A stretch of DNA of 64,000 nt. It comes from Trinickia dinghuensis. GTDB taxonomy: Bacteria; Pseudomonadota; Gammaproteobacteria; Burkholderiales; Burkholderiaceae. The stretch's first letter is position 1. Every line of letters starts with the position of its first letter. The notes under the pieces were generated by a model. The model was not told the origin of the DNA and did not search any database. It saw only the letters and a list, made by a program, of their open reading frames with translations. Positions 40,594 through 50,080 of this stretch are shown here, piece by piece. Location: assembly GCF_003367175.1 (NCBI RefSeq), contig NZ_QRGA01000001.1, positions 434,001 through 498,000 of the forward strand, read 5' to 3'. A program made the position numbers and the translations under genes.

Positions 40594-42195
40594 TCAGACT
40601 TGGGGAAGCGGGTCCGGCCGATTCCGCGACTTCAGCAATCGGGCGGTTTCGGCCCATGTCGGCACGAGTGCTTCGCGCGCCTTGCGATACGCCGGAAAAA
40701 GTTGCGCATACAACTGAATCAATTCCGGCTCGGGGTGCTCCGGTTGCCCAAGCAGCGGCGTCACCCACTCGGCGATGCATGCGTTCATGTCCGGGTACAC
40801 ACCGAGCGCGACCGCAGCCATCATGGCTGCTCCGGCCGCGCCCGCTTCCTCGCGCGTGGAAATCCGCGTCGGCGCGCCGACCACGGCGCCGAGCACGCCG
40901 CGCAATGCGCGCGAACGCGTCGCTCCTCCGGTCAGGCGCAGCTCGTCCGGCATCGGAATGCCCATCGAGGTATAGCAATCGCGTGCCGCCATCCCGAGCC
41001 CCTCGACCACAGCGCGGAACAGGTCGGGATAGCGGCTCTCGCTCGTCAATCCGATAAAGTCGGCGCGCGCGTTGGGCTCGACAAACGGTCCGCGCTCGCC
41101 TGCGTCCGAGATATACGGGTGATACAGCAGAGAACCAGGCCGGCCCGTTTGCAGCCATCTCTCGATGCATTGGATCCGGTCGCTATGAGACAGGCTCGTG
41201 CCGAACTGCGCGAGCAGGTCGCATGCGAGATTGAGCACCCAGTCGACGTTCAGCGTCGCGGCCATATTCGACTGAACCTGTGCCGACATGCCCGGCAACG
41301 GCAGCGCAATGACATAGCCCGTGCCTTCCGCGTTCAGATGCACGTTTTCGTTGCGCATCGCCCGCATGTGCATGCCCGTCGATCCGACGATCGAGCAGCT
41401 CGCGCCCGCCGCGCCTTCAGTGTGGATGCCCGCACCGAGCGCCGTCAGCACGATATCGACGAACCCGAGACATACGGGCGTGCCGGCCAGCAGGCCCGTC
41501 GCATCCGCTGCCTTGGCGGACAGCGGATGGGTGATCTCGGTCCCGTCGATGATCTCGGGCAGCAAGCCGCGCCACGCGCTCAGGCCGAGCGCTTCGATCA
41601 CCGCATCGTCGTAGCGGCGCGTGCGGAAGTTGCCGTAGGTGAAGCTGGCCTCCGACGGATCGGTCGCACGCACTCCGGTCAGGTTGAGGTAAAGCCAGTC
41701 CTTGCAATGCAGCGCAACTTCAGCGCGATTCAATACTTCCGGCGTCGTCGCGGCCATATGCGCGATCTGTGCGCTCTGGTTGCATGCGGCGAGTCCCGTC
41801 CCCGTTGCCTCGAAGCGCGTACGGCTCGCCGGCCCCTCCTGCAGCGCGCGCACCGTATTCGCTGCACGCGCGTCGAGCCATAGCCACGCGTCGGTGGCGG
41901 GCTCGTTTGCCGCGCCGACGAGCCAAGTACCGTCGCCCTGGCCCGTGACCGCCAATGCTTGCGTGCGTTGCGCCAGGCCATCGACCTTCGCACCGAGATC
42001 GCGCAAGGTCTGCGCGCAATCCGCCCAAGTCCGATCGAGCGACTGGGTTGCCGCACCATCGGCCCTCGTCGTGTAACGATTAGGCAGCGAGGCGACAGCA
42101 ACCTGTCGTCCTGACAAATCGAAGGCGACGGCCTTGATGACCGACGTGCCCGCGTCGATGCCGATCAGGAGATCGCGCGCCGCGTTGCCTGTCAC
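40594..42195 (-). CDS. eryA: Erythritol kinase (FGGY family)
   Basis: Sugar kinase of 533 residues in the FGGY family. It has the N-terminal phosphate-1 motif LLIGIDAGTSVIKAV and the C-terminal ATP-binding segment LRLTGGATRSRALRGVLGAVVGAP. It phosphorylates erythritol with ATP to give erythritol-4-phosphate. The start is GTG 42195, with GGAGG 4 bases upstream and a GTGA overlap with the eryD stop; the longer frame upstream is the eryD gene read out of frame. First enzyme of the pathway and second gene of the operon. Confidence 0.88.
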   Translation of the reverse strand: MTGNAARDLLIGIDAGTSVIKAVAFDLSGRQVAVASLPNRYTTRADGAATQSLDRTWADCAQTLRDLGAKVDGLAQRTQALAVTGQGDGTWLVGAANEPATDAWLWLDARAANTVRALQEGPASRTRFEATGTGLAACNQSAQIAHMAATTPEVLNRAEVALHCKDWLYLNLTGVRATDPSEASFTYGNFRTRRYDDAVIEALGLSAWRGLLPEIIDGTEITHPLSAKAADATGLLAGTPVCLGFVDIVLTALGAGIHTEGAAGASCSIVGSTGMHMRAMRNENVHLNAEGTGYVIALPLPGMSAQVQSNMAATLNVDWVLNLACDLLAQFGTSLSHSDRIQCIERWLQTGRPGSLLYHPYISDAGERGPFVEPNARADFIGLTSESRYPDLFRAVVEGLGMAARDCYTSMGIPMPDELRLTGGATRSRALRGVLGAVVGAPTRISTREEAGAAGAAMMAAVALGVYPDMNACIAEWVTPLLGQPEHPEPELIQLYAQLFPAYRKAREALVPTWAETARLLKSRNRPDPLPQV

Positions 42196-43169
42196 GATGC
42201 CTCCGTCGCGGCAGGTTCCTGCTTCAGCGCCAGCGCCGTGGCCTCGTCGGTAATCAAGCCGCTGAGCAAGCCGCTGTTCAGCACGGCGCGGATCGCCGGA
42301 ATCTTCGACGTTCCCCCGGCGATGGCAACGATGCGCCGGCTCGTCAGATCGTCCAGCGAGGGTGCCACCGTGCGCGCCGCCAATGAAGTCTCGATGCATT
42401 CGCCGGCATCGCTGAAGAAGTGCCCCAGCAATTCGCCCTGGCCGCCCTTGCCACGCACTTCCTCGATTTCCGCCGGCTCGATCATCTGCGACGCCACGAG
42501 TTGCGCGTCCGCGTCCACCGCTCCGATCCCGACGACCATCAAGTCCGAATGCGCCGCGAGATCGAACACTTCGCGCACGCCGCGCTGCGAGAGCAGCACT
42601 TCACGATCCTCGGCGGTATTCGCGAAAAACGGCAGCGGCAGCACGTACGACACCGCACCTGTCTGATCGGCGAGCTTGTGGATGACGTCATACGGGTTCG
42701 CGGTGTACTTGCGCGTCACGCCGCCGAGCAGCGAGACGAAGCGCACCGTGCCCGCATCCATGCGCGGAATATTCGCCACCACGGCGGCCAGCGTGCGCCC
42801 GTGCCCAATGCCGATGACGCCGTCTTGACGCGCGGCGATCTCGCGCTGCATGAAATAGGCCCCCGCGACGCCGAGCGCGCGCAACGGCAGTTCGCCTTCG
42901 TGCAGATCCGGCACCACTTCGCAATAGCTCAGGCCATAGCGCTGGGCCAATTCGGCTTCGAGCACGACGCACTCGGCAACGTCGCCGTCGATCGTGAACT
43001 TGATCGCACCGCTCTGGTTGGCGCGCGTAATCAGCCGATGCGCCTTGACGCTGCTTACGCCGAGACGCGAAGCGACATCGGCCTGGGTCTGCCCGGCCGC
43101 GTAGTGCAGCCACGCCGCTCGTATTGCAAGACTGTCCTCGGCATCCCGCTTTCCAGCGATCTTCGTCAT
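42192..43169 (-). CDS. eryD: SorC/DeoR-type regulator of the erythritol operon (EryD-like)
   Basis: Regulator of 325 residues with an N-terminal HTH (GQTQADVASRLGVSSVKAHRLI) and a SorC sugar-binding domain (VIGIGHGRTLAAVV, a phosphate-binding type loop; SLLGGVTRKYTANP). EryD in Brucella represses the ery operon and is relieved by erythritol. Here it is the first gene of the operon and is divergent from the CoA-transferase gene. ATG 43169 has GGAG 6 bases upstream. A short palindrome at 43213-43226 may be its operator. Confidence 0.87.
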   Translation of the reverse strand: MTKIAGKRDAEDSLAIRAAWLHYAAGQTQADVASRLGVSSVKAHRLITRANQSGAIKFTIDGDVAECVVLEAELAQRYGLSYCEVVPDLHEGELPLRALGVAGAYFMQREIAARQDGVIGIGHGRTLAAVVANIPRMDAGTVRFVSLLGGVTRKYTANPYDVIHKLADQTGAVSYVLPLPFFANTAEDREVLLSQRGVREVFDLAAHSDLMVVGIGAVDADAQLVASQMIEPAEIEEVRGKGGQGELLGHFFSDAGECIETSLAARTVAPSLDDLTSRRIVAIAGGTSKIPAIRAVLNSGLLSGLITDEATALALKQEPAATEAS

Positions 43170-43226: not shown

Positions 43227-43405
43227 TTGCGCCTAAGATAAACATCCGAGTCGTCGCTTGCCATCCGCTTTAACCCTAGATAGGGTCGGCGGCCCAAGGG
43301 AACCTGAAGTCAAATGTCTGACCGATCCCCGCATCGTCACACATCCGGGTAATCCCCAATTTCTAGCGCTCCAAACCAAGATCTAGCATTGCTCCGTGAT
43401 TTTTA

Positions 43406-43432
43406 TAGAACGTTGTTCTGTTAGATAGAACG
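43406..43432. promoter_or_regulatory. Candidate IclR-type operator before the CoA-transferase operon
   Basis: A perfect inverted repeat, AGAAC-GTT-GTTCT (43407-43419), is followed by a third AGAAC half-site (43427-43431). It lies just upstream of the CoA-transferase ATG at 43453. The layout, three short arms close together, fits IclR-family binding sites; an IclR gene closes the same gene cluster. Confidence 0.55.
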
Positions 43433-43452
43433 ACACGAGCGATGAGATTCCA

Positions 43453-44664
43453 ATGGCTTCACTTCCTCTTTCCGGCATTCGTGTCCTGGACTTGTCCAAC
43501 GTCTTGTCTGGACCGTTTTGCACGTACCAACTCGCGCTGCTCGGTGCCGACGTCCTCAAGATCGAGAACCCGGACGGCGGAGATCTCGCCCGCCGCTTGG
43601 GCGCCGACCCCCAAGCATCGGCGCGCAACATGGGGGCGTCGTTCGTCGCGGTGAACGCGGGCAAGGAATCGATGACGCTCAATCTCAAGCACGCAGCCGG
43701 CAAGGAGATACTGCGCAGGCTCGTGGCCGAGACGGATGTGCTCGTCGAAAACTTCCGCCCCGGCGTGATGGATCGCCTGGGGCTCAGCGCGCAGTCGCTG
43801 CTCGCCGTGAATCCACGCCTCGTCTACTGCGCGATCTCCGGGTTCGGCAACGATGGGCCGCTCGCACATAGGCCCGCCTACGACCAGATCATTCAAGGCA
43901 TGTCCGGGGCGATGAGCGTCACCGGCGGCCCCGATACCGCACCGCTGCGCGTCGGCTATCCCGTGGCCGATACCGTGGGCGGCATGAGCGCGGCGCTCGC
44001 CATCTGCGCGGCGGTGCTCGCCGCGCAACGCACCGGCGAAGGAAGGATCATCGACGTGTCGATGCTCGAAGCCACCATGTCGACGATGGGCTGGGTCGTA
44101 TCGAATTACCTGAACGCAGGCGTCGAGCCCACGCCCATGGGCAACGAGAATTTCACCGCGGCCCCCTCGGGCACTTTTGCTTGCGGCGAAGGCAAGTTGA
44201 ACATCGCTGCGAACGAAACGAAGCAATTCATCGCGCTATGCGAAGTCATCGGCCGCCCCGAGCTCGCCCAAGACGAACGATTCCGCGAGCGCGATACACG
44301 CAAGCGGCATCGCGCCGAACTCAAGCGTGAGATCGAGGCTGCGCTACGGACCGATAGCGCCGCCAATTGGGAAGCTCGCCTGATCGCAGTAGGCGTGCCG
44401 GTGGGGCTCGTCTTGAGCGTGCCCGATGCCGTGCGCCAACCGCAGATCGCCGGCCGTCAATTCATTCGCGAATTCGAAGACGGCGAGACAGTGCAGCGTG
44501 TCACACGCTCAGGCTTTCGCTTGATCGATGCGCAGGGCAAGCCGTCTTCAGGCGGACCCGCCAAGCGCGCACCACGTTTGTCCGAGCACACACAAGCGCG
44601 CCTGGAGCGGCTTGCATTCGATGCCGAGACGATCGCACGACTAAGAGACGAAGGCGCGATCTGA
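43453..44664 (+). CDS. CaiB/BaiF-family (type III) CoA-transferase
   Basis: CoA-transferase of 403 residues. It has the family N-terminus GIRVLDLSNVLSGPFCTYQLALLGADV, the segment NPRLVYCAISGFGNDGP, and the catalytic Asp at 173 in GYPVADTVGG. Such enzymes move CoA between carboxylic acids through an aspartyl-CoA anhydride. First gene of a five-gene plus-strand cluster with an MFS carrier, a citryl-CoA-lyase-like protein, an SMP-30 lactonase and an IclR regulator. It presumably activates the acid that the lyase then cleaves; substrate unknown. Confidence 0.9.
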   Translation: MASLPLSGIRVLDLSNVLSGPFCTYQLALLGADVLKIENPDGGDLARRLGADPQASARNMGASFVAVNAGKESMTLNLKHAAGKEILRRLVAETDVLVENFRPGVMDRLGLSAQSLLAVNPRLVYCAISGFGNDGPLAHRPAYDQIIQGMSGAMSVTGGPDTAPLRVGYPVADTVGGMSAALAICAAVLAAQRTGEGRIIDVSMLEATMSTMGWVVSNYLNAGVEPTPMGNENFTAAPSGTFACGEGKLNIAANETKQFIALCEVIGRPELAQDERFRERDTRKRHRAELKREIEAALRTDSAANWEARLIAVGVPVGLVLSVPDAVRQPQIAGRQFIREFEDGETVQRVTRSGFRLIDAQGKPSSGGPAKRAPRLSEHTQARLERLAFDAETIARLRDEGAI

Positions 44665-44719
44665 TTGATCCGACCTGACGCTTCGAGACACCGAACAGGA
44701 AAAGGAATAGGAGGAAGAC

Positions 44720-46180
44720 TTGAAACCGACCATTGCCGCGGGAGCGATCCCGCCGGTGCAGACCGCATCGACACGAACGAGAACCCTGGCAGCCGACCAC
44801 GAACCCGCCGCTCGCGCAATCGTGGCCCGACTGGATCGGCTGCCCGCCACGCGCCATATCTGGAGCATCGTATTGCTGCTGTCGCTGGGCGGCTGCTTCG
44901 AGTTCTATGACCTATTCATGACCGGCTATATCGCGCCGGGCCTGATCGCAAGCGGACTGTTCGCCAAGGCCTCCACGTCGATCTTCGCGCTGAACAGCAT
45001 CGCTTCGTTCGTGGCGGCAACGTTCACGGGACTCTTTATCGGAACGTTGGGGCTCGGCTTTCTAGCCGACCGCTTCGGGCGTCGGCGCATTTTCGTCGTC
45101 GCCTTGCTCGCCTATACCGCGGCCAGCGTGTTGATGGCGTTCCAGCAAAGTGCGCTCGGCGTGAACGTGTTCCGCTTGCTCGCCGGCATCGGGCTCGGCG
45201 TCGAAATGGTGACGATCAATACCTATGTCGCCGAATTGATGCCGAAGAACTTAAGGGGCCGCGCGTTCGCGATCACTCAAATCGTGCCTTACTGCGCCGT
45301 GCCGGCAGTCGCGCTGATGTCGTGGTGGCTCGTGCCGATGCACCCGCTCGGCATCGACGGCTGGCGCTGGGTCGTGCTCGCGAGTGCAGCGGGCGCGGCA
45401 CTGGTCTGGCTGATTCGGCTCGGCATCCCCGAAAGCCCGCGTTGGCTGGTGACGCAAGGACGGCTAGACGAGGCAGCGCGCGTAACGGAAAAAATCGAGC
45501 GTATCGTCGCGCGTCAGCATGGCGGAGCATTGCCGGAGCCCGCGCCTCAAGAACACGCCGCGCCGACGATCGAGCGGCGCTTCCGCGACGTGTTGAAAGC
45601 GCCGTATCTGAACCGCACGGTCATGTTGTCGTTATTCAATGCGATCCAAGTGATCGGCTTTTACGGCTTCAGCAACTGGATTCCGTCGCTGCTGGCGAGC
45701 AAGGGCTTTGGCCTCGTCCATAGCCTGCAGTATTCGTTCATGATGTCCATCGCGTTGCCGTTCGGCCCGGCCCTCTTCTTCTACTTTGCCGACAAGGTCG
45801 AACGCAAATGGAGTCTCGTCGGCGCGGCGGGGGCCGCCGCCGCGTTCGGCCTGCTGTTCGCGAATCAGACCGGAGCGGCCGGGCTCATCGCCTTCGGGCT
45901 GTTCATGAACCTCTCGCTCACGATCATGAGCTACTCGTTCCAAACGTATCAGTCGGAGTTGTATCCGACCGAAATCCGCGCACGTGCTATCGGCTTCGTC
46001 TATTCGTGGAGCCGGCTCAGCGCGATCTTTTCAGGCTTCGTCGTCGCGTTCTTTCTGCGCGACTTCGGTGCGTCGGGCGTGTTCTACATGATCACCGGCT
46101 GCATGGTGCTCGTGATGCTGCTGATCGGCATCATGGGACCGTCGACGAAAGGCCTTGCGCTCGAAGACATCAATCGCTGA
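44720..46180 (+). CDS. MFS sugar/organic-acid transporter
   Basis: Twelve-helix carrier of 486 residues with a roughly 45-residue cytosolic N-terminal tail. The first helix has the motif GGCFEFYDLFMTGYIAPGL, and the loop after helix 2 GFLADRFGRRRIFV. It belongs to the sugar-porter/aromatic-acid:H+ symporter area. TTG 44720 is the start: AGGAGGAAG lies right in front and no ATG fits the site. It sits between the CoA-transferase and lyase genes and probably imports the cluster's substrate. Confidence 0.87.
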   Translation: MKPTIAAGAIPPVQTASTRTRTLAADHEPAARAIVARLDRLPATRHIWSIVLLLSLGGCFEFYDLFMTGYIAPGLIASGLFAKASTSIFALNSIASFVAATFTGLFIGTLGLGFLADRFGRRRIFVVALLAYTAASVLMAFQQSALGVNVFRLLAGIGLGVEMVTINTYVAELMPKNLRGRAFAITQIVPYCAVPAVALMSWWLVPMHPLGIDGWRWVVLASAAGAALVWLIRLGIPESPRWLVTQGRLDEAARVTEKIERIVARQHGGALPEPAPQEHAAPTIERRFRDVLKAPYLNRTVMLSLFNAIQVIGFYGFSNWIPSLLASKGFGLVHSLQYSFMMSIALPFGPALFFYFADKVERKWSLVGAAGAAAAFGLLFANQTGAAGLIAFGLFMNLSLTIMSYSFQTYQSELYPTEIRARAIGFVYSWSRLSAIFSGFVVAFFLRDFGASGVFYMITGCMVLVMLLIGIMGPSTKGLALEDINR

Positions 46181-46199
46181 CTGCAATTAGGAATCCTCT

Positions 46200-47036
46200 A
46201 TGACTCATACCGATGATTTCGGATCGCTCGCCGCCGACTATTGGCGCACCTCGATCGTCGACATCCACCCGGGCTCGATTCGCGTGCGCGGCTATCCGAT
46301 TCAGGAGCTGATCGGCGCAATCAGCTTCCCGCAAATGATCTGGCTGATGCTGCGCGGCGAGTTGCCTTCGCCGGGACAGGCGCGCCTATTGGAGGCGGCG
46401 CTCGTCGCTTCCGTCGATCACGGCCCGCACGCGCCGTCGATCGCCATTTCCCGCATGGCCGTCAGTTGCGGCTTGCCGTTGAACGGCGCAATGGCTTCGG
46501 CACTCAATACGCTCGACGATGTCCATGGCGGCGCCGGACAGCAAGCGGTCGAACTCTTTCATGCGATCGAACGCGAGCAAGCGCAAGGGGCGACGCTCGA
46601 GGCCGCCGTCGAACAATCGATCGATGCGTTCATCGCCGAAAACGGCAAGTACCTGCCTGGTTTCGGACATCGATTCCATCCCGTCGATCCGCGCGCGGGC
46701 CGGCTGCTGGCGATGGTCGACGAAGCCGCGGCCGAGCGCGTCGTGCCCGGACACTATGCCGCGATCGCACGCGGCATCGAGGCCTTGTTGAAAACGCGCA
46801 AAGGCCGCTCGATTCCGATGAACATCGACGGCGCAACGGCGGTCATCTATGCCGAACTCGGCTTCGAGCCCGAACTCGCGCGCGGCGTATTCTGCCTTTC
46901 GCGCGCGGTCGGCATTCTGTCGCATGCGTGGGAGCAGAAAGGGCGAGCCGAACGCAACAAAGGCCCGATGCCGCGTCAAATGCCCTATCGATATACGGGC
47001 AAGGCCGAGCGTCATTACCCCGGAGACGATCAATGA
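46200..47036 (+). CDS. Citryl-CoA lyase-like protein (citrate synthase superfamily)
   Basis: Compact citrate-synthase-fold protein of 278 residues, far shorter than citrate synthase (about 430). It matches the lyase domain of ATP-citrate lyase in style. All catalytic residues are present: H74 (VDHGPHAP), H109 (DDVHGGAG), H157 (GFGHRFHPVDPRA) and D210 (MNIDGATA). It should cleave a citryl-CoA-like ester, such as citryl-CoA or citramalyl-CoA, to acetyl-CoA and a keto acid. Paired with the type III CoA-transferase it makes a stand-alone two-step cleavage route. Its stop overlaps the lactonase start by 4 bases. Confidence 0.85.
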   Translation: MTHTDDFGSLAADYWRTSIVDIHPGSIRVRGYPIQELIGAISFPQMIWLMLRGELPSPGQARLLEAALVASVDHGPHAPSIAISRMAVSCGLPLNGAMASALNTLDDVHGGAGQQAVELFHAIEREQAQGATLEAAVEQSIDAFIAENGKYLPGFGHRFHPVDPRAGRLLAMVDEAAAERVVPGHYAAIARGIEALLKTRKGRSIPMNIDGATAVIYAELGFEPELARGVFCLSRAVGILSHAWEQKGRAERNKGPMPRQMPYRYTGKAERHYPGDDQ

Positions 47037-47941
47037 GCTGGCACCCTACACCGCGGCTCATCGGAACGACCGTCCACACGGGGATGCCCGACGCATTGCG
47101 CAAGCACGGTGTCGTCACGGATTGGTCGCGCGCCAACAAGGGCGGCGAGGCGATCGACTGCTTCATCGAAGGACCGTGCTTCGATCCCGAGGGCAATCTC
47201 TATGTCGTGGATATTCCGCATGGGCGAATCTTTCAAATTTCGCCGTCGCTCGAATGGCGCGAGATCGTGAATTACGATGGCGAACCCAACGGTCTAGCCT
47301 GGCATCCGGAACATCGCCTCATCATCGCCGATTACAAGAACGGCGTGATGAAACTCGATCCGGCACGCGGCGAAGCGCAGCCATTGCTCACGCGGCGCAA
47401 CAGCGAGCGCTTCAAGGGCATCAACGATCTCATCGTGGCCCGCAACGGCGATATCTATTTCACGGATCAAGGGCAGACGGGTCTGCACGATCCGACGGGC
47501 CGGGTCTTTCGCTTGACGGCGGCAGGCCGCCTCGATTGCCTGATCGACAACGGCCCCAGTCCGAACGGTCTCGTGCTCGATGCGAAGGAAAAGGTGCTGT
47601 TCGTCGCGATGACGCGCGACAACTCGATATGGCGCATGCCGCTGCTGCCCGACGGCAGCACGAGCAAGGTCGGGCGCTTCGCTCAGTTTTACGGCACCAG
47701 CGGCCCGGACGGCTTGACGATGGACACCCAGGGCAACTTGTTCGTCGCTCATGCGTCCCTTGGCGCCGTCTTCGTGCTCAACGCGCACGGCGAAGGCATC
47801 GCGAAGATCGAATCGTGCGCGGGCCGCACGATCACCAACGTCACCTTCGGCGGCCCGCAAGGGCAAACGCTTTTCATCACCGATTCGAGTACCGGGGCGG
47901 TATTGCGCACCGATTGGAGCGAGCCGGGCATCGCGAAGTAA
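47033..47941 (+). CDS. SMP-30/gluconolactonase/LRE-family lactonase
   Basis: Six-bladed propeller hydrolase of 302 residues. Metal ligands are in place: E46 (IEGPCFDPEGN), Asn in EPNGLAW, Asn in SPNGLVLD, and Asp in SGPDGLTMD. The family opens sugar lactones and other cyclic esters. It is coupled to the lyase gene (ATGA overlap), so the pathway probably starts from, or passes through, a lactone of the hydroxy acid that is later converted to its CoA ester. No signal peptide; cytoplasmic. The frame is also open far upstream, through the lyase gene, by chance. Confidence 0.88.
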   Translation: MSWHPTPRLIGTTVHTGMPDALRKHGVVTDWSRANKGGEAIDCFIEGPCFDPEGNLYVVDIPHGRIFQISPSLEWREIVNYDGEPNGLAWHPEHRLIIADYKNGVMKLDPARGEAQPLLTRRNSERFKGINDLIVARNGDIYFTDQGQTGLHDPTGRVFRLTAAGRLDCLIDNGPSPNGLVLDAKEKVLFVAMTRDNSIWRMPLLPDGSTSKVGRFAQFYGTSGPDGLTMDTQGNLFVAHASLGAVFVLNAHGEGIAKIESCAGRTITNVTFGGPQGQTLFITDSSTGAVLRTDWSEPGIAK

Positions 47942-47946
47942 AATGA

Positions 47947-47974
47947 CGCTCCGTCAGGCATAACGCCCGGAGCG
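47947..47974 (+). terminator. Stem-loop after the lactonase gene
   Basis: CGCTCCG / CGGAGCG, a perfect 7-bp stem with a 14-base loop, lies just past the lactonase stop (tail of the catabolic operon). It lacks a U tract, so it may only attenuate transcription into the IclR gene. Confidence 0.35.
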
Positions 47975-48048
47975 CGAGGTAGGCAATGCGCGCCGCGCGG
48001 CCGGGTTCGCCCGGGTTGTGCCGCGCCATTTCCGACTTCCCGCTATCC

Positions 48049-48834
48049 ATGGCTGCTTCTTCGAATCGCCCCTCCGCCGATGCCGTTGCCGCGCCGTCGA
48101 CATCGCCCGATGGCGTTGCCGCGCTCGATCGCGCCTTCGCGATCCTGTTCGCGTTCCGCCCCGACGACAAGGGGCTGTCGCTCGCGGAGCTCGCGACACG
48201 CACGGGGCTCTATAAAAGCACGATCCTGCGGTTGATCGCGTCGCTCACCCATCATCGCATGCTGCTGCGCTCCGACGACGGCCGCTATTTCGTCGGCCCC
48301 GGCGCATTGCAACTCGGTGCGCTCTTTCAACGCGGCCTTCAACTGGGCGACGTGATCTTGCCGTTGATGCGCGGGTTGCGCGACGAAAGCGGCGAAAGCA
48401 TTTCGTTCTACGTCAGGCAGCAGAACCTGCGCGTGTGCCTGCATCGGGTGGATTCGACGCATGCGGTTCGCGACCATGTCCGCGAGGGCGACGTGCTGCC
48501 GATGGACAAAGGATCGGGTGGCCGCGTACTGACCGCATTCGGAGGCGCGCACGGCCAACTTTATGAAACGATCAGACGGGAAGGCTACTACCTCTCGATC
48601 GGCGAGCGCGATGCGGAAACGGCCGGGATTTCGACGCCGGTGTTTTCAGCAGGGCAACCGCTCGCTGGCGTGCTGACGCTCGCGGGACCGCGCTCGCGGG
48701 TCGACGAGGTGTTGTTGAGGCGGATGCGCCGGCCGATGGTCGAGACGTCGATTCGCGCGAGCGAATTGCTCGGGGGCGACGCGGCACCGCTACGTGCCGC
48801 GCTCGCCATACTCGATACGGGGAAAGGGCGCTAG
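48049..48834 (+). CDS. IclR-family transcriptional regulator
   Basis: Regulator of 261 residues: an N-terminal winged HTH (SLAELATRTGLYKSTILRLIASL, about residues 44-66) and a C-terminal IclR effector domain (SGESISFYVRQQNLRVCLHR; GSGGRVLTAF). ATG 48049 begins a Ala/Ser/Pro-rich tail; a longer frame from 47986 is possible. It ends the CoA-transferase/lyase/lactonase cluster and is the obvious candidate to bind the AGAAC repeats at 43406-43432. Inducer unknown. Confidence 0.87.
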   Translation: MAASSNRPSADAVAAPSTSPDGVAALDRAFAILFAFRPDDKGLSLAELATRTGLYKSTILRLIASLTHHRMLLRSDDGRYFVGPGALQLGALFQRGLQLGDVILPLMRGLRDESGESISFYVRQQNLRVCLHRVDSTHAVRDHVREGDVLPMDKGSGGRVLTAFGGAHGQLYETIRREGYYLSIGERDAETAGISTPVFSAGQPLAGVLTLAGPRSRVDEVLLRRMRRPMVETSIRASELLGGDAAPLRAALAILDTGKGR

Positions 48835-48898: not shown

Positions 48899-49990
48899 CT
48901 ATTTGATCGACTGAATCTGCGCCTGACTCAACTCCCAGATGTGCGGCGGCAGCGGAATGAAGTGCGCCGCCGTCAGCCAAGCCGCGTTATCTTCGGATGG
49001 CACGATCGTCCAGAGCAGGAAGCGGCGGATCGCAGCGGCCATTGCGGGATCGTGCTGTTTCGTCGACACCACCGCGTACTCGTAATTCACGAGCGGATAG
49101 GAGCCGCTCGCGGGCGCGAACACCAGCGTCAAGCGCTCGTCGGACGGCGTGCGGGCGCCAAGCGAAGCCGCACCCGCCATGATCGAATCGGTCGTAGGGA
49201 GAACGAATTCGCCTGCCCCGTTCTTCAAGGCCACCGTCCCGATCTTCGCTTGGGCGACGCTGTCGCGATAGCTGACCCCGACATAGCCGATCGAATACGC
49301 CGTCGACGCAATCGCCTTCACCATCCCCGCATTGCCTACTGCGGTCGTGCTGCCGGGCACGCTGGGCCACGAGATCGTCGTGCCGTATCCATGATCGCTT
49401 TCCCACGAAGGGGTCGAGAACGTCAGGAACTGTGTGAAGACGAAGGTATCGCCGGACCCTTCCGCGCGCCGGATCGGCACGATCGCGTGATGCGGCAGCG
49501 ACACGCCAGGATTGAGCGCCGCGATTTGCGGCGCATCCCAAGAGCGCACGGCCCCCGAATACATTCCGGCGAGCGTCGGACCATCGAGCTTCAGATGAAG
49601 CGCGTTCAAGCCCGGGACGTTGTAATTGATCGTTTGGGCGGCGATCGCCAACGGCACGTTGATGATCTGCGGATGTTGCCGAATGTCCGCATCCGACATA
49701 TAGGCATCCGAAGCACCGATATTCACGGCCCCCGCGATCACTTGCTGAATGCCCGCCTCGGAACCGGTGGCGCCGAGATTGACGTGCACCCCGGGATGCG
49801 ACTTCGTATATTGCGCAACCCACGTCGTGAACATCGGATACAAGAGCGTCGAGCCCGTCTCGTTGAGCGTCGTCTCTTGCGCGAAGCCGGACACACTAGT
49901 CAGCATGGCTAGCGCAGCCATGCCGAGCGTCGCCCCTGCGAACTTGCGCCAACGTAGCCGGGAAGCCCGGCTTTCGTGCGGGTAAGCCAT
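48899..49990 (-). CDS. Orphan PstS-like phosphate-binding protein
   Basis: Periplasmic protein of 363 residues with a signal peptide (ATLGMAALAMLTSVSGFAQ). Its ligand loops match PstS: GSTLLYPMF, TGSEAGIQQV, GASDAYMSD and RRAEGSGDTFVF. The normal GSG-T arrangement in the last loop has Glu and Asp changes. No pstC, pstA or pstB gene is nearby, so it may be a DING-like, signalling or scavenging protein rather than a transporter part. ATG 49990 has GGAG 6 bases upstream; ATG 50002 does not. It follows an MFS gene on the same strand. Confidence 0.85.
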   Translation of the reverse strand: MAYPHESRASRLRWRKFAGATLGMAALAMLTSVSGFAQETTLNETGSTLLYPMFTTWVAQYTKSHPGVHVNLGATGSEAGIQQVIAGAVNIGASDAYMSDADIRQHPQIINVPLAIAAQTINYNVPGLNALHLKLDGPTLAGMYSGAVRSWDAPQIAALNPGVSLPHHAIVPIRRAEGSGDTFVFTQFLTFSTPSWESDHGYGTTISWPSVPGSTTAVGNAGMVKAIASTAYSIGYVGVSYRDSVAQAKIGTVALKNGAGEFVLPTTDSIMAGAASLGARTPSDERLTLVFAPASGSYPLVNYEYAVVSTKQHDPAMAAAIRRFLLWTIVPSEDNAAWLTAAHFIPLPPHIWELSQAQIQSIK

Positions 49991-50080
49991 GCGAGTCTCC
50001 ATCCCCTTTGGGGAAACCGTTGCTTCGATTGCGTACCTGAGTGTCCACGCACCCGTGTACCTGACGGCGAGCGCCGACGC

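What the first reader, a model, noticed from the sequence alone, without database searches (positions are those of the whole stretch)
43406..48834. Stand-alone CoA-transferase / citryl-CoA-lyase / SMP-30 lactonase pathway
The cluster joins a type III CoA-transferase, an MFS carrier, a 278-residue citryl-CoA-lyase-type protein with all citrate-synthase catalytic residues (H74, H109, H157, D210), a lactonase coupled to it by a 4-base overlap, and an IclR regulator with a candidate operator. Established chemistry of these families predicts: lactone opened to a hydroxy acid, acid converted to its CoA ester, ester cleaved to acetyl-CoA plus a keto acid. Citramalate, a hydroxycitrate lactone or a related acid would fit. 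I know no described pathway with exactly this set; that is from memory, not a search.
Basis: partly seen in the sequence, partly recalled or inferred. Interest (0 to 1): 0.75.

Follow-up and report, generated by a model that had tools for sequence, protein, structure and literature searches.

The report
Operon for breaking citrate-type lactones
A bacterium of the Burkholderia family carries five adjacent genes, with an upstream DNA site that recurs in dozens of relatives and is likely their switch; they are predicted to open a lactone of a citrate-like acid, load it onto coenzyme A and cut it into acetyl-CoA and a keto acid.

Summary
In detail: five intact same-strand genes, CoA-transferase, MFS carrier, citryl-CoA-lyase-family protein (CCL), SMP-30 with a 4-base overlap, and IclR. 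CCL scores 460 bits against a citryl-CoA lyase cut-off of 261; its catalytic residues are invariant in 141 of 141 distinct sequences, window included. CoA-transferase plus CCL is the core: 129 of 143 loci. Carrier and lactonase are exchangeable: in Bosea the slot after CCL holds an amidohydrolase instead of SMP-30, and a separate clade does the same, which supports a lactone substrate. A three-box IclR-type site (43407-43431) recurs exactly in 48 of 143 loci, one each, 10-133 bases before a cluster gene; the reversed pattern gives no exact match. It is missing in Bradyrhizobium and most Ralstonia loci. The scheme lactone, acid, CoA ester, acetyl-CoA plus keto acid is supported by context only; no activity is shown. 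Citrate and citramalate form no gamma-lactone; a homocitrate-type lactone fits best, hydroxycitrate second. My literature searches found no such gene set. New variant of a known kind, with a bolder possible link to quinate ring cleavage.

The parts
43407..43431 (+). three-box IclR-type operator AGAAC-N3-GTTCT-N7-AGAAC, 21 bases before the CoA-transferase start codon
   Evidence: only exact match in the window and in the own genome; exact in 48 of 143 distinct CCL loci, one each, 10-133 bases before the matched part of a cluster gene; reversed pattern 0 exact; three-box sites of IclR regulators are described in PMC8222616 (passages)
43453..44664 (+). family III CoA-transferase (403 aa), predicted to make the CoA ester
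   Evidence: PF02515 399.6 bits; best NCBIfam is succinate--glutarate CoA-transferase, 291 bits, under its cut-off of 750; Asp173 in VADTVGG lines up with an Asp of 10uh and 4hl6; that it is the catalytic Asp is recalled
44720..46180 (+). MFS carrier (486 aa, TTG start)
   Evidence: PF00083 and PF07690; below the cut-off of each of the 25 NCBIfam models shown
46200..47036 (+). citryl-CoA-lyase-family protein (278 aa), predicted to cleave the CoA ester to acetyl-CoA and a 2-oxo acid
   Evidence: NF004864 460.1 bits, cut-off 261; 6hxp best PDB relative, 132.6 bits; catalytic residues invariant in 141 of 141; only match over the cut-off in the own genome
47033..47941 (+). SMP-30/gluconolactonase-family protein (302 aa), predicted lactonase, ATGA overlap with CCL
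   Evidence: PF08450 137.6 bits; E46, N131, N178, D226 at least 98% conserved in 121 sequences; ortholog in 19 of 249 Burkholderiaceae genomes, beside CCL in 18, on another contig in one where CCL lies at a contig end
47986..48834 (+). IclR-family regulator (282 aa)
   Evidence: PF09339 and PF01614; BhcR and PcaR/PcaU/PobR models match below their cut-offs

Best explanation
The five genes likely form one IclR-controlled catabolic operon in which the SMP-30 protein would open the gamma-lactone of a citrate-type tricarboxylic acid (most likely a homocitrate-type acid), the CoA-transferase would put CoA on its CH2-COOH arm, and the citryl-CoA-lyase-family protein would cut the ester into acetyl-CoA and a 2-oxo-dicarboxylate. 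For homocitrate that second product would be 2-oxoglutarate, which enters the TCA cycle without further enzymes. Shown here: the genes, the families, the invariant active-site residues, the conserved upstream site and the exchangeable lactonase slot. Inferred: direction, substrates, order of steps, uptake by the MFS carrier, and that the IclR protein binds the site.
For: CCL is far over the citryl-CoA lyase cut-off and keeps the citrate-synthase active site. CoA-transferase within 4 kb of CCL in 129 of 143 distinct loci. SMP-30 orthologs (68% identity or more; the next matches are 58% or less) are in 19 of 249 Burkholderiaceae genomes, all among the 74 with a CCL over the cut-off; 18 lie directly beside CCL on the same strand, one on another contig. 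Bosea L076 keeps IclR-ABC-CoA-transferase-CCL but has an amidohydrolase in the SMP-30 slot, 63% identical to that of L064, which matches PF04909; a separate clade (L064, L066, L080, L186) has DASS carrier-CoA-transferase-CCL-amidohydrolase. The nearest solved relative of the L064 amidohydrolase is 4dlf (52 bits over half its length), recalled as an L-fuconolactonase. Citrate-type substrate: Azospirillum has ALDH-CCL-CoA-transferase-TcuA-like protein (357 bits, cut-off 369); Agrobacterium larrymoorei has ALDH-CCL-CoA-transferase-FAD oxidoreductase and, further on, AcnA (annotation); Ruegeria has TctCBA-CoA-transferase-CCL. SMP-30 paralogs of 52-57% identity lie, in 4 of 4 loci sampled, with relatives of a sulfomuconolactone-hydrolase-like protein, a 2-hydroxyacid dehydrogenase and a carboxy-hydroxy-oxoadipate-aldolase-like protein (families scanned in L231 only). 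Same upstream site in Burkholderiaceae forms with and without lactonase.
Against: No activity was measured. The CoA-transferase and the carrier are below the specific cut-offs shown. 55 of the 74 Burkholderiaceae genomes with CCL have no SMP-30 ortholog. In 6 Bradyrhizobium loci SMP-30 matches only as pieces and in a seventh as a partial match, with CCL whole, so the lactonase is dispensable there. The nearest SMP-30 relatives outside CCL loci (59-61%, three genomes, L227-L229) have no CCL and, where scanned (L227), nitrate-reductase-type neighbours. 69 of 143 loci have no site with up to two mismatches within 150 bases of a cluster gene, among them the Bradyrhizobium and Ralstonia SMP-30 loci. 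The SsuABC-like carrier of Ralstonia is not a typical tricarboxylate carrier. L132 has CoA-transferase-CCL behind a gentisate-type gene set, so substrates may differ between branches. Homocitrate rather than hydroxycitrate rests on chemistry, not on a test.
Confidence: 0.45

Rival explanations
1. Same scheme, but the substrate is hydroxycitric acid lactone (Garcinia or Hibiscus acid) from plants; products acetyl-CoA and a hydroxy-oxosuccinate.
For: Hydroxycitric acid and its lactone occur in plants (start of abstract of PMC6043575 in the listing; otherwise my knowledge); carriers of relatives and the active site fit a tricarboxylate.
Against: Its keto product would need extra enzymes and none is in the window operon; the TcuA-like, aconitase and quinate-type contexts of relatives do not need it.
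Confidence: 0.2
2. The CoA-transferase/CCL pair breaks down a plain acid (citrate, citramalate or another 2-substituted malate) and SMP-30 does an unrelated job.
For: 129 of 143 loci have the pair but only 26 of 143 an SMP-30 match, broken, cut and paralogous ones included; Paraburkholderia forms lack it but keep the upstream site; L132 links the pair to gentisate-type genes, where citramalate is a plausible product.
Against: SMP-30 orthologs in the 249 Burkholderiaceae are confined to CCL genomes; SMP-30 overlaps CCL by 4 bases here; another lactonase-type fold takes the same slot in Bosea.
Confidence: 0.2
3. The substrate is a fungal alkylcitrate or alkylhomocitrate lactone (for example spiculisporic acid), cut to a fatty acyl-CoA and oxaloacetate or 2-oxoglutarate.
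For: Such lactones exist and have the right skeleton (my knowledge).
Against: No beta-oxidation gene among the five; CCL relatives lie beside Tct, DASS and TRAP carriers, which usually serve small acids.
Confidence: 0.08
4. CCL runs in the synthetic direction (a small citrate-synthase-like condensing enzyme) and the operon makes a citrate-type acid.
For: Shares the citrate-synthase active site.
Against: Best Pfam stretch begins at position 162 of 357 of the citrate synthase profile, so the N-terminal part is mostly lacking; a CoA-transferase, a carrier and a lactonase-family gene beside it fit breakdown better.
Confidence: 0.05

Closest known systems
Citryl-CoA lyase of Hydrogenobacter thermophilus (PDB 6hxp), reductive TCA cycle
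   Same: same family, similar length, same catalytic residues
   Different: there the CoA ester comes from citryl-CoA synthetase (recalled); here a family III CoA-transferase sits beside it and a lactonase-family gene overlaps it
Itaconate and citramalate route (CoA-transferase, hydratase, CitE-type citramalyl-CoA lyase)
   Same: CoA transfer followed by cleavage to acetyl-CoA and a keto acid (recalled)
   Different: its lyase is a CitE/HpcH-type enzyme (recalled); the window lyase matches only the citrate-synthase family in Pfam
SMP-30/gluconolactonase and COG3618-type amidohydrolase lactonases (4-sulfomuconolactone hydrolase, L-fuconolactonase)
   Same: families, and conserved presumed metal-site residues of SMP-30
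   Different: coupling to a citryl-CoA lyase was not found in my searches
PcaU/PobR/HmgR three-box operators of IclR regulators
   Same: palindrome plus a further direct half-site, as described in PMC8222616 (passages)
   Different: half-site AGAAC and its spacing recur here before CoA-transferase/CCL operons

Membership tests
Citryl-CoA lyase (NF004864) | curated score cut-off 261 bits | tested here: met
   460.1 bits
Citryl-CoA lyase (NF004864) | citrate-synthase catalytic His, His, His, Asp and substrate Arg | tested here: met
   H74, H109, H157, D210, R165, R235 invariant in 141 of 141 distinct sequences; whether R252 is the second carboxylate Arg could not be settled from the gapped alignment
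Citryl-CoA lyase (NF004864) | cleaves citryl-CoA | not testable with these tools
   no assay
Citrate synthase | full-length enzyme over a citrate synthase cut-off | tested here: not met
   278 aa; best citrate synthase model 84.5 bits against 590
CitE-type citramalyl-CoA lyase | HpcH/HpaI-type domain | tested here: not met
   only PF00285 in Pfam
Family III CoA-transferase | PF02515 and catalytic Asp | tested here: met
   399.6 bits; Asp173, its catalytic role recalled
Succinyl-CoA:glutarate, oxalate or mesaconate CoA-transferase | equivalog cut-off | tested here: not met
   291/750, 275/522, 242/700 bits
SMP-30/gluconolactonase | PF08450 and conserved metal-site residues | tested here: met
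   137.6 bits; E46, N131, N178, D226 at least 98% conserved; that they are the metal ligands is recalled
IclR regulator with three-box operator | IclR domains and a conserved three-box site next to the operon | tested here: met
   binding itself not testable here
Reductive TCA citrate cleavage (citryl-CoA synthetase + lyase) | citryl-CoA synthetase in the genome | not tested
   none of the five genes is one; the genome was not searched for it

The most novel reading that the evidence does not exclude
The CoA-transferase/CCL module is the exit of an undescribed non-aromatic route for quinate-type rings: the ring is opened with inositol-like chemistry to a homocitrate-type acid, whose CoA ester is cut to acetyl-CoA and 2-oxoglutarate or a hydroxylated analogue; the window operon is the salvage arm for the gamma-lactone that this acid forms. 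Support: Azoarcus and Aromatoleum (4 of 143 loci) have CoA-transferase-CCL-ThDP enzyme-shikimate dehydrogenase-dehydroquinase; alphaproteobacteria without the CoA-transferase (for example L221) have an IolG-like dehydrogenase, a QuiC-like protein, CCL, a ThDP enzyme and an acylating-aldehyde-dehydrogenase-like protein that could make the CoA ester; chemists make homocitrate lactone by cleaving a quinate-type ring (PMC3556520, passages).
Probability: 0.2. Interest if true: 0.85.

Novelty: new variant of a known kind. Interest (0 to 1): 0.55.

Why it matters
If right, a lyase family named after a carbon-fixation enzyme would in many of its carriers be a breakdown enzyme for citrate-type acids, and the operon would give a testable pathway for acids (homocitrate, hydroxycitrate and their lactones) for which my searches of open-access papers listed no bacterial breakdown pathway. 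The conserved upstream site could serve as a biosensor for finding the true inducer. Homocitrate is essential for the nitrogenase cofactor (start of abstract of PMC6934396), so a route that destroys it in root-associated bacteria would be of wider interest.

Tried and rejected
Ordinary citrate synthase: rejected. Citramalate as the lactone substrate: set aside on chemistry; kept as a rival for branches such as L132. The ThDP enzyme of Aromatoleum as a cyclohexane-1,2-dione hydrolase: not supported, that enzyme (2pgn) is the 29th PDB row (180.8 bits against 277.8 for the best), and no IolD model is among the 25 NCBIfam rows shown of 51. Context of SMP-30 in L227 (nitrate-reductase-type neighbours) gave no substrate clue. 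Of six further plasmid hits one had a gene table over the stretch and five had none. A sigma-70 promoter scan found none and its four terminator-like sites are no more than the shuffles give. A first operator pattern with the wrong spacing found nothing and was corrected. I did not predict structures.

Literature: searches; only open-access papers are held. No listing showed this gene set, homocitrate breakdown by a CoA ester, or a CCL/quinate link. Passages seen: PMC12543098, PMC2864759, PMC6593406, PMC6934396 (86, one hit in its reference list), PMC3556520, PMC8222616; all others as listings with the start of the abstract.

Rows dropped: one search used 141 distinct sequences (window included) of 173 with more than 250 bits and more than 240 query positions spanned; searches left out loci under 7 kb, loci with identical CCL DNA and CCL matches of 220 bits or less; the tree holds 78 rows that I chose, 5 chosen loci (L001, L007, L018, L021, L050) being absent from the sequence set. 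The samples share some genomes. Distances run to the matched part of the nearest scanned gene, not to its start codon.
Full report
What is there. Between 43453 and 48834 five intact genes lie on the + strand: a family III CoA-transferase, an MFS carrier, a 278-residue citryl-CoA-lyase-family protein (CCL), an SMP-30 protein whose ATG overlaps the CCL stop by four bases, and an IclR regulator; gaps are 55, 19, -4 and 44 bases. Pfam and NCBIfam place them at family level. CCL scores 460 bits on NF004864 (cut-off 261) and is the only match over that cut-off in the own genome. The CoA-transferase and the carrier stay below the specific models shown, so their substrates are open.

Active site. Aligned with the genome's own citrate synthase and the H. 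thermophilus CCL (6hxp), H74, H109, H157, D210, R165 and R235 occupy catalytic and substrate-binding positions and are invariant in 141 of 141 distinct sequences, window included. The match of R252 to the second citrate-synthase arginine is unsettled. SMP-30 keeps E46, N131, N178 and D226 in at least 98% of 121 sequences; that these are the metal ligands of the family is recalled.

Conservation. Of 249 Burkholderiaceae genomes 74 have a CCL over the cut-off; in two wider, partly overlapping samples 16 of 299 and 25 of 385. A CoA-transferase lies within 4 kb of CCL in 129 of 143 distinct loci, and in 79 of the 79 of these that came from the genome collection. The five-gene order recurs in L001, L004, L005 and L006; L002 and L003 show no IclR within 7 kb; in L128 the MFS and in L130 the IclR gene is turned; an alphaproteobacterium (L209) has MFS-IclR-CoA-transferase-CCL-SMP-30. 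SMP-30 orthologs (68% identity or more; next matches 58% or less) are in 19 of the 249 genomes, all among the 74 CCL genomes, 18 directly beside CCL and one on another contig (the chance of 1.6e-11 printed ignores relatedness). Against exclusive coupling: 55 of the 74 CCL genomes have no such ortholog; three other genomes hold a 59-61% SMP-30 without CCL; in the sample of 385, one SMP-30 of 71% is beside CCL and one of 61% is in a genome without CCL over the cut-off; in six Bradyrhizobium loci SMP-30 matches only in pieces, in a seventh only partly.

Exchangeable lactonase. Bradyrhizobium loci such as L071 have IclR-SsuABC-like-CoA-transferase-CCL-SMP-30; Bosea L076 has the same order with an amidohydrolase in the last place. 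In the CCL tree the 43-row clade that holds 23 of 24 SMP-30 rows also holds Bosea, as sister to Bradyrhizobium, and 19 rows with neither, so replacement is the simplest reading but separate gains are possible. A second clade (L064, L066, L080, L186) has DASS carrier-CoA-transferase-CCL-amidohydrolase. The L064 amidohydrolase matches PF04909; that of Bosea is 63% identical to it. Its nearest solved relative is 4dlf (52 bits over part of the length), recalled as an L-fuconolactonase. Two unrelated lactonase-type folds in one slot argue for a lactone substrate. SMP-30 paralogs of 52-57% sit, in 4 of 4 loci sampled, with relatives of a 4-sulfomuconolactone-hydrolase-like protein, a 2-hydroxyacid dehydrogenase and a carboxy-hydroxy-oxoadipate-aldolase-like protein (scanned in L231): again genes that suit lactones of tertiary hydroxy acids. 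The 59-61% group does not show this.

Operator. Upstream of the CoA-transferase, the window and six close relatives share one block in otherwise diverged DNA. As AGAACRNYGTTCT-N7-RGAAC it occurs once in the window (43407-43431) and once exactly in the genome; with two mismatches the genome has 3 matches and the backward pattern 3, so only the exact match counts there. Of 143 distinct CCL loci 48 carry it exactly, one copy each, 10-133 bases before a cluster gene (38 times MFS, 9 CoA-transferase, 1 IclR); with up to two mismatches 74 have it within 150 bases. The reversed pattern gave 0 exact and 1 near match against 103 near matches. 69 loci lack it, among them the Bradyrhizobium loci and the Ralstonia loci (a few Ralstonia have near matches further off). 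PMC8222616 (passages) describes such three-box sites for IclR regulators. It stands before Burkholderiaceae forms with and without lactonase, so within that group one inducer class is likely.

Which acid. Relatives point to citrate-type tricarboxylates: TctCBA, a DASS carrier, a TcuA-like protein at 357 of 369 bits in Azospirillum, AcnA some way downstream in Agrobacterium larrymoorei and aconitase next to CCL in L131 and L175. Citrate and citramalate form no gamma-lactone; homocitrate and hydroxycitrate do (my knowledge; for homocitrate, PMC3556520 obtained only the lactone on purification). Of these two, homocitrate would give a central metabolite with no further enzyme. This is an inference. 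L132, with a gentisate-type set before CoA-transferase-CCL, shows that branches may differ.

Quinate link. Azoarcus and Aromatoleum loci (L063, L067, L068, L183) add a ThDP enzyme, a shikimate-dehydrogenase-type and a dehydroquinase-type protein, with QuiC-like halves upstream. Streptomyces and Nonomuraea records (L205, L206) have a related ThDP enzyme (52-53%) near CoA-transferase-CCL. Alphaproteobacterial loci, for example L221, have an IolG-like dehydrogenase (118 bits, cut-off 355), a QuiC-like protein, CCL, an acylating-aldehyde-dehydrogenase-like protein (447 bits, cut-off 600) and the ThDP enzyme but no CoA-transferase. All these scores are below the cut-offs, and the QuiC-like halves in Azoarcus would equally fit an ordinary route to protocatechuate. 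The set suggests ring opening to a homocitrate-type acid. It is the boldest reading, not the verdict.

Verdict.

Noticed in passing
L183, L063, L067, L068 (Azoarcus, Aromatoleum); L166, L170, L218, L221 (alphaproteobacteria): CCL lies with a ThDP enzyme and quinate/shikimate- or inositol-type genes; the alphaproteobacterial form has no CoA-transferase within 4 kb, and L221 has an acylating-aldehyde-dehydrogenase-like gene.
   Followed up: partly
L230, L231, L232, L234: A sister cluster of SMP-30 with a sulfomuconolactone-hydrolase-like protein, 2-hydroxyacid dehydrogenase and carboxy-hydroxy-oxoadipate-aldolase-like protein (families scanned in L231), IclR in 3 of 4; perhaps another route for lactones of tertiary hydroxy acids.
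   Followed up: partly
L069, L073, L077, L079, L191, L207 (and partial L070): SMP-30 of several Bradyrhizobium matches only in pieces while CCL is whole; L071 has an unbroken copy.
   Followed up: partly
window 43347-43357: A GGGTAATCCCC block about 50 bases upstream of the operator; GGGTAANCCC is present in 6 of the 7 aligned sequences (window included), perhaps a second regulator site.
   Followed up: no
[quoted passage not shown]
   Followed up: partly
L132, L184: CoA-transferase-CCL next to FAD monooxygenase, cupin and fumarylacetoacetate-hydrolase-type genes, suggesting a gentisate-type pathway that may end in a citramalate-like acid.
   Followed up: partly
window 48899-50002 (-): A PstS-type phosphate-binding protein (TIGR00975, 314 bits, cut-off 205) directly downstream on the other strand; whether Pst permease or ATPase genes are near was not examined.
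   Followed up: no
window 42192-43169 (-): A DeoR/LsrR-type regulator with a sugar-binding domain (PF04198) on the other strand just upstream of the operon.
   Followed up: no
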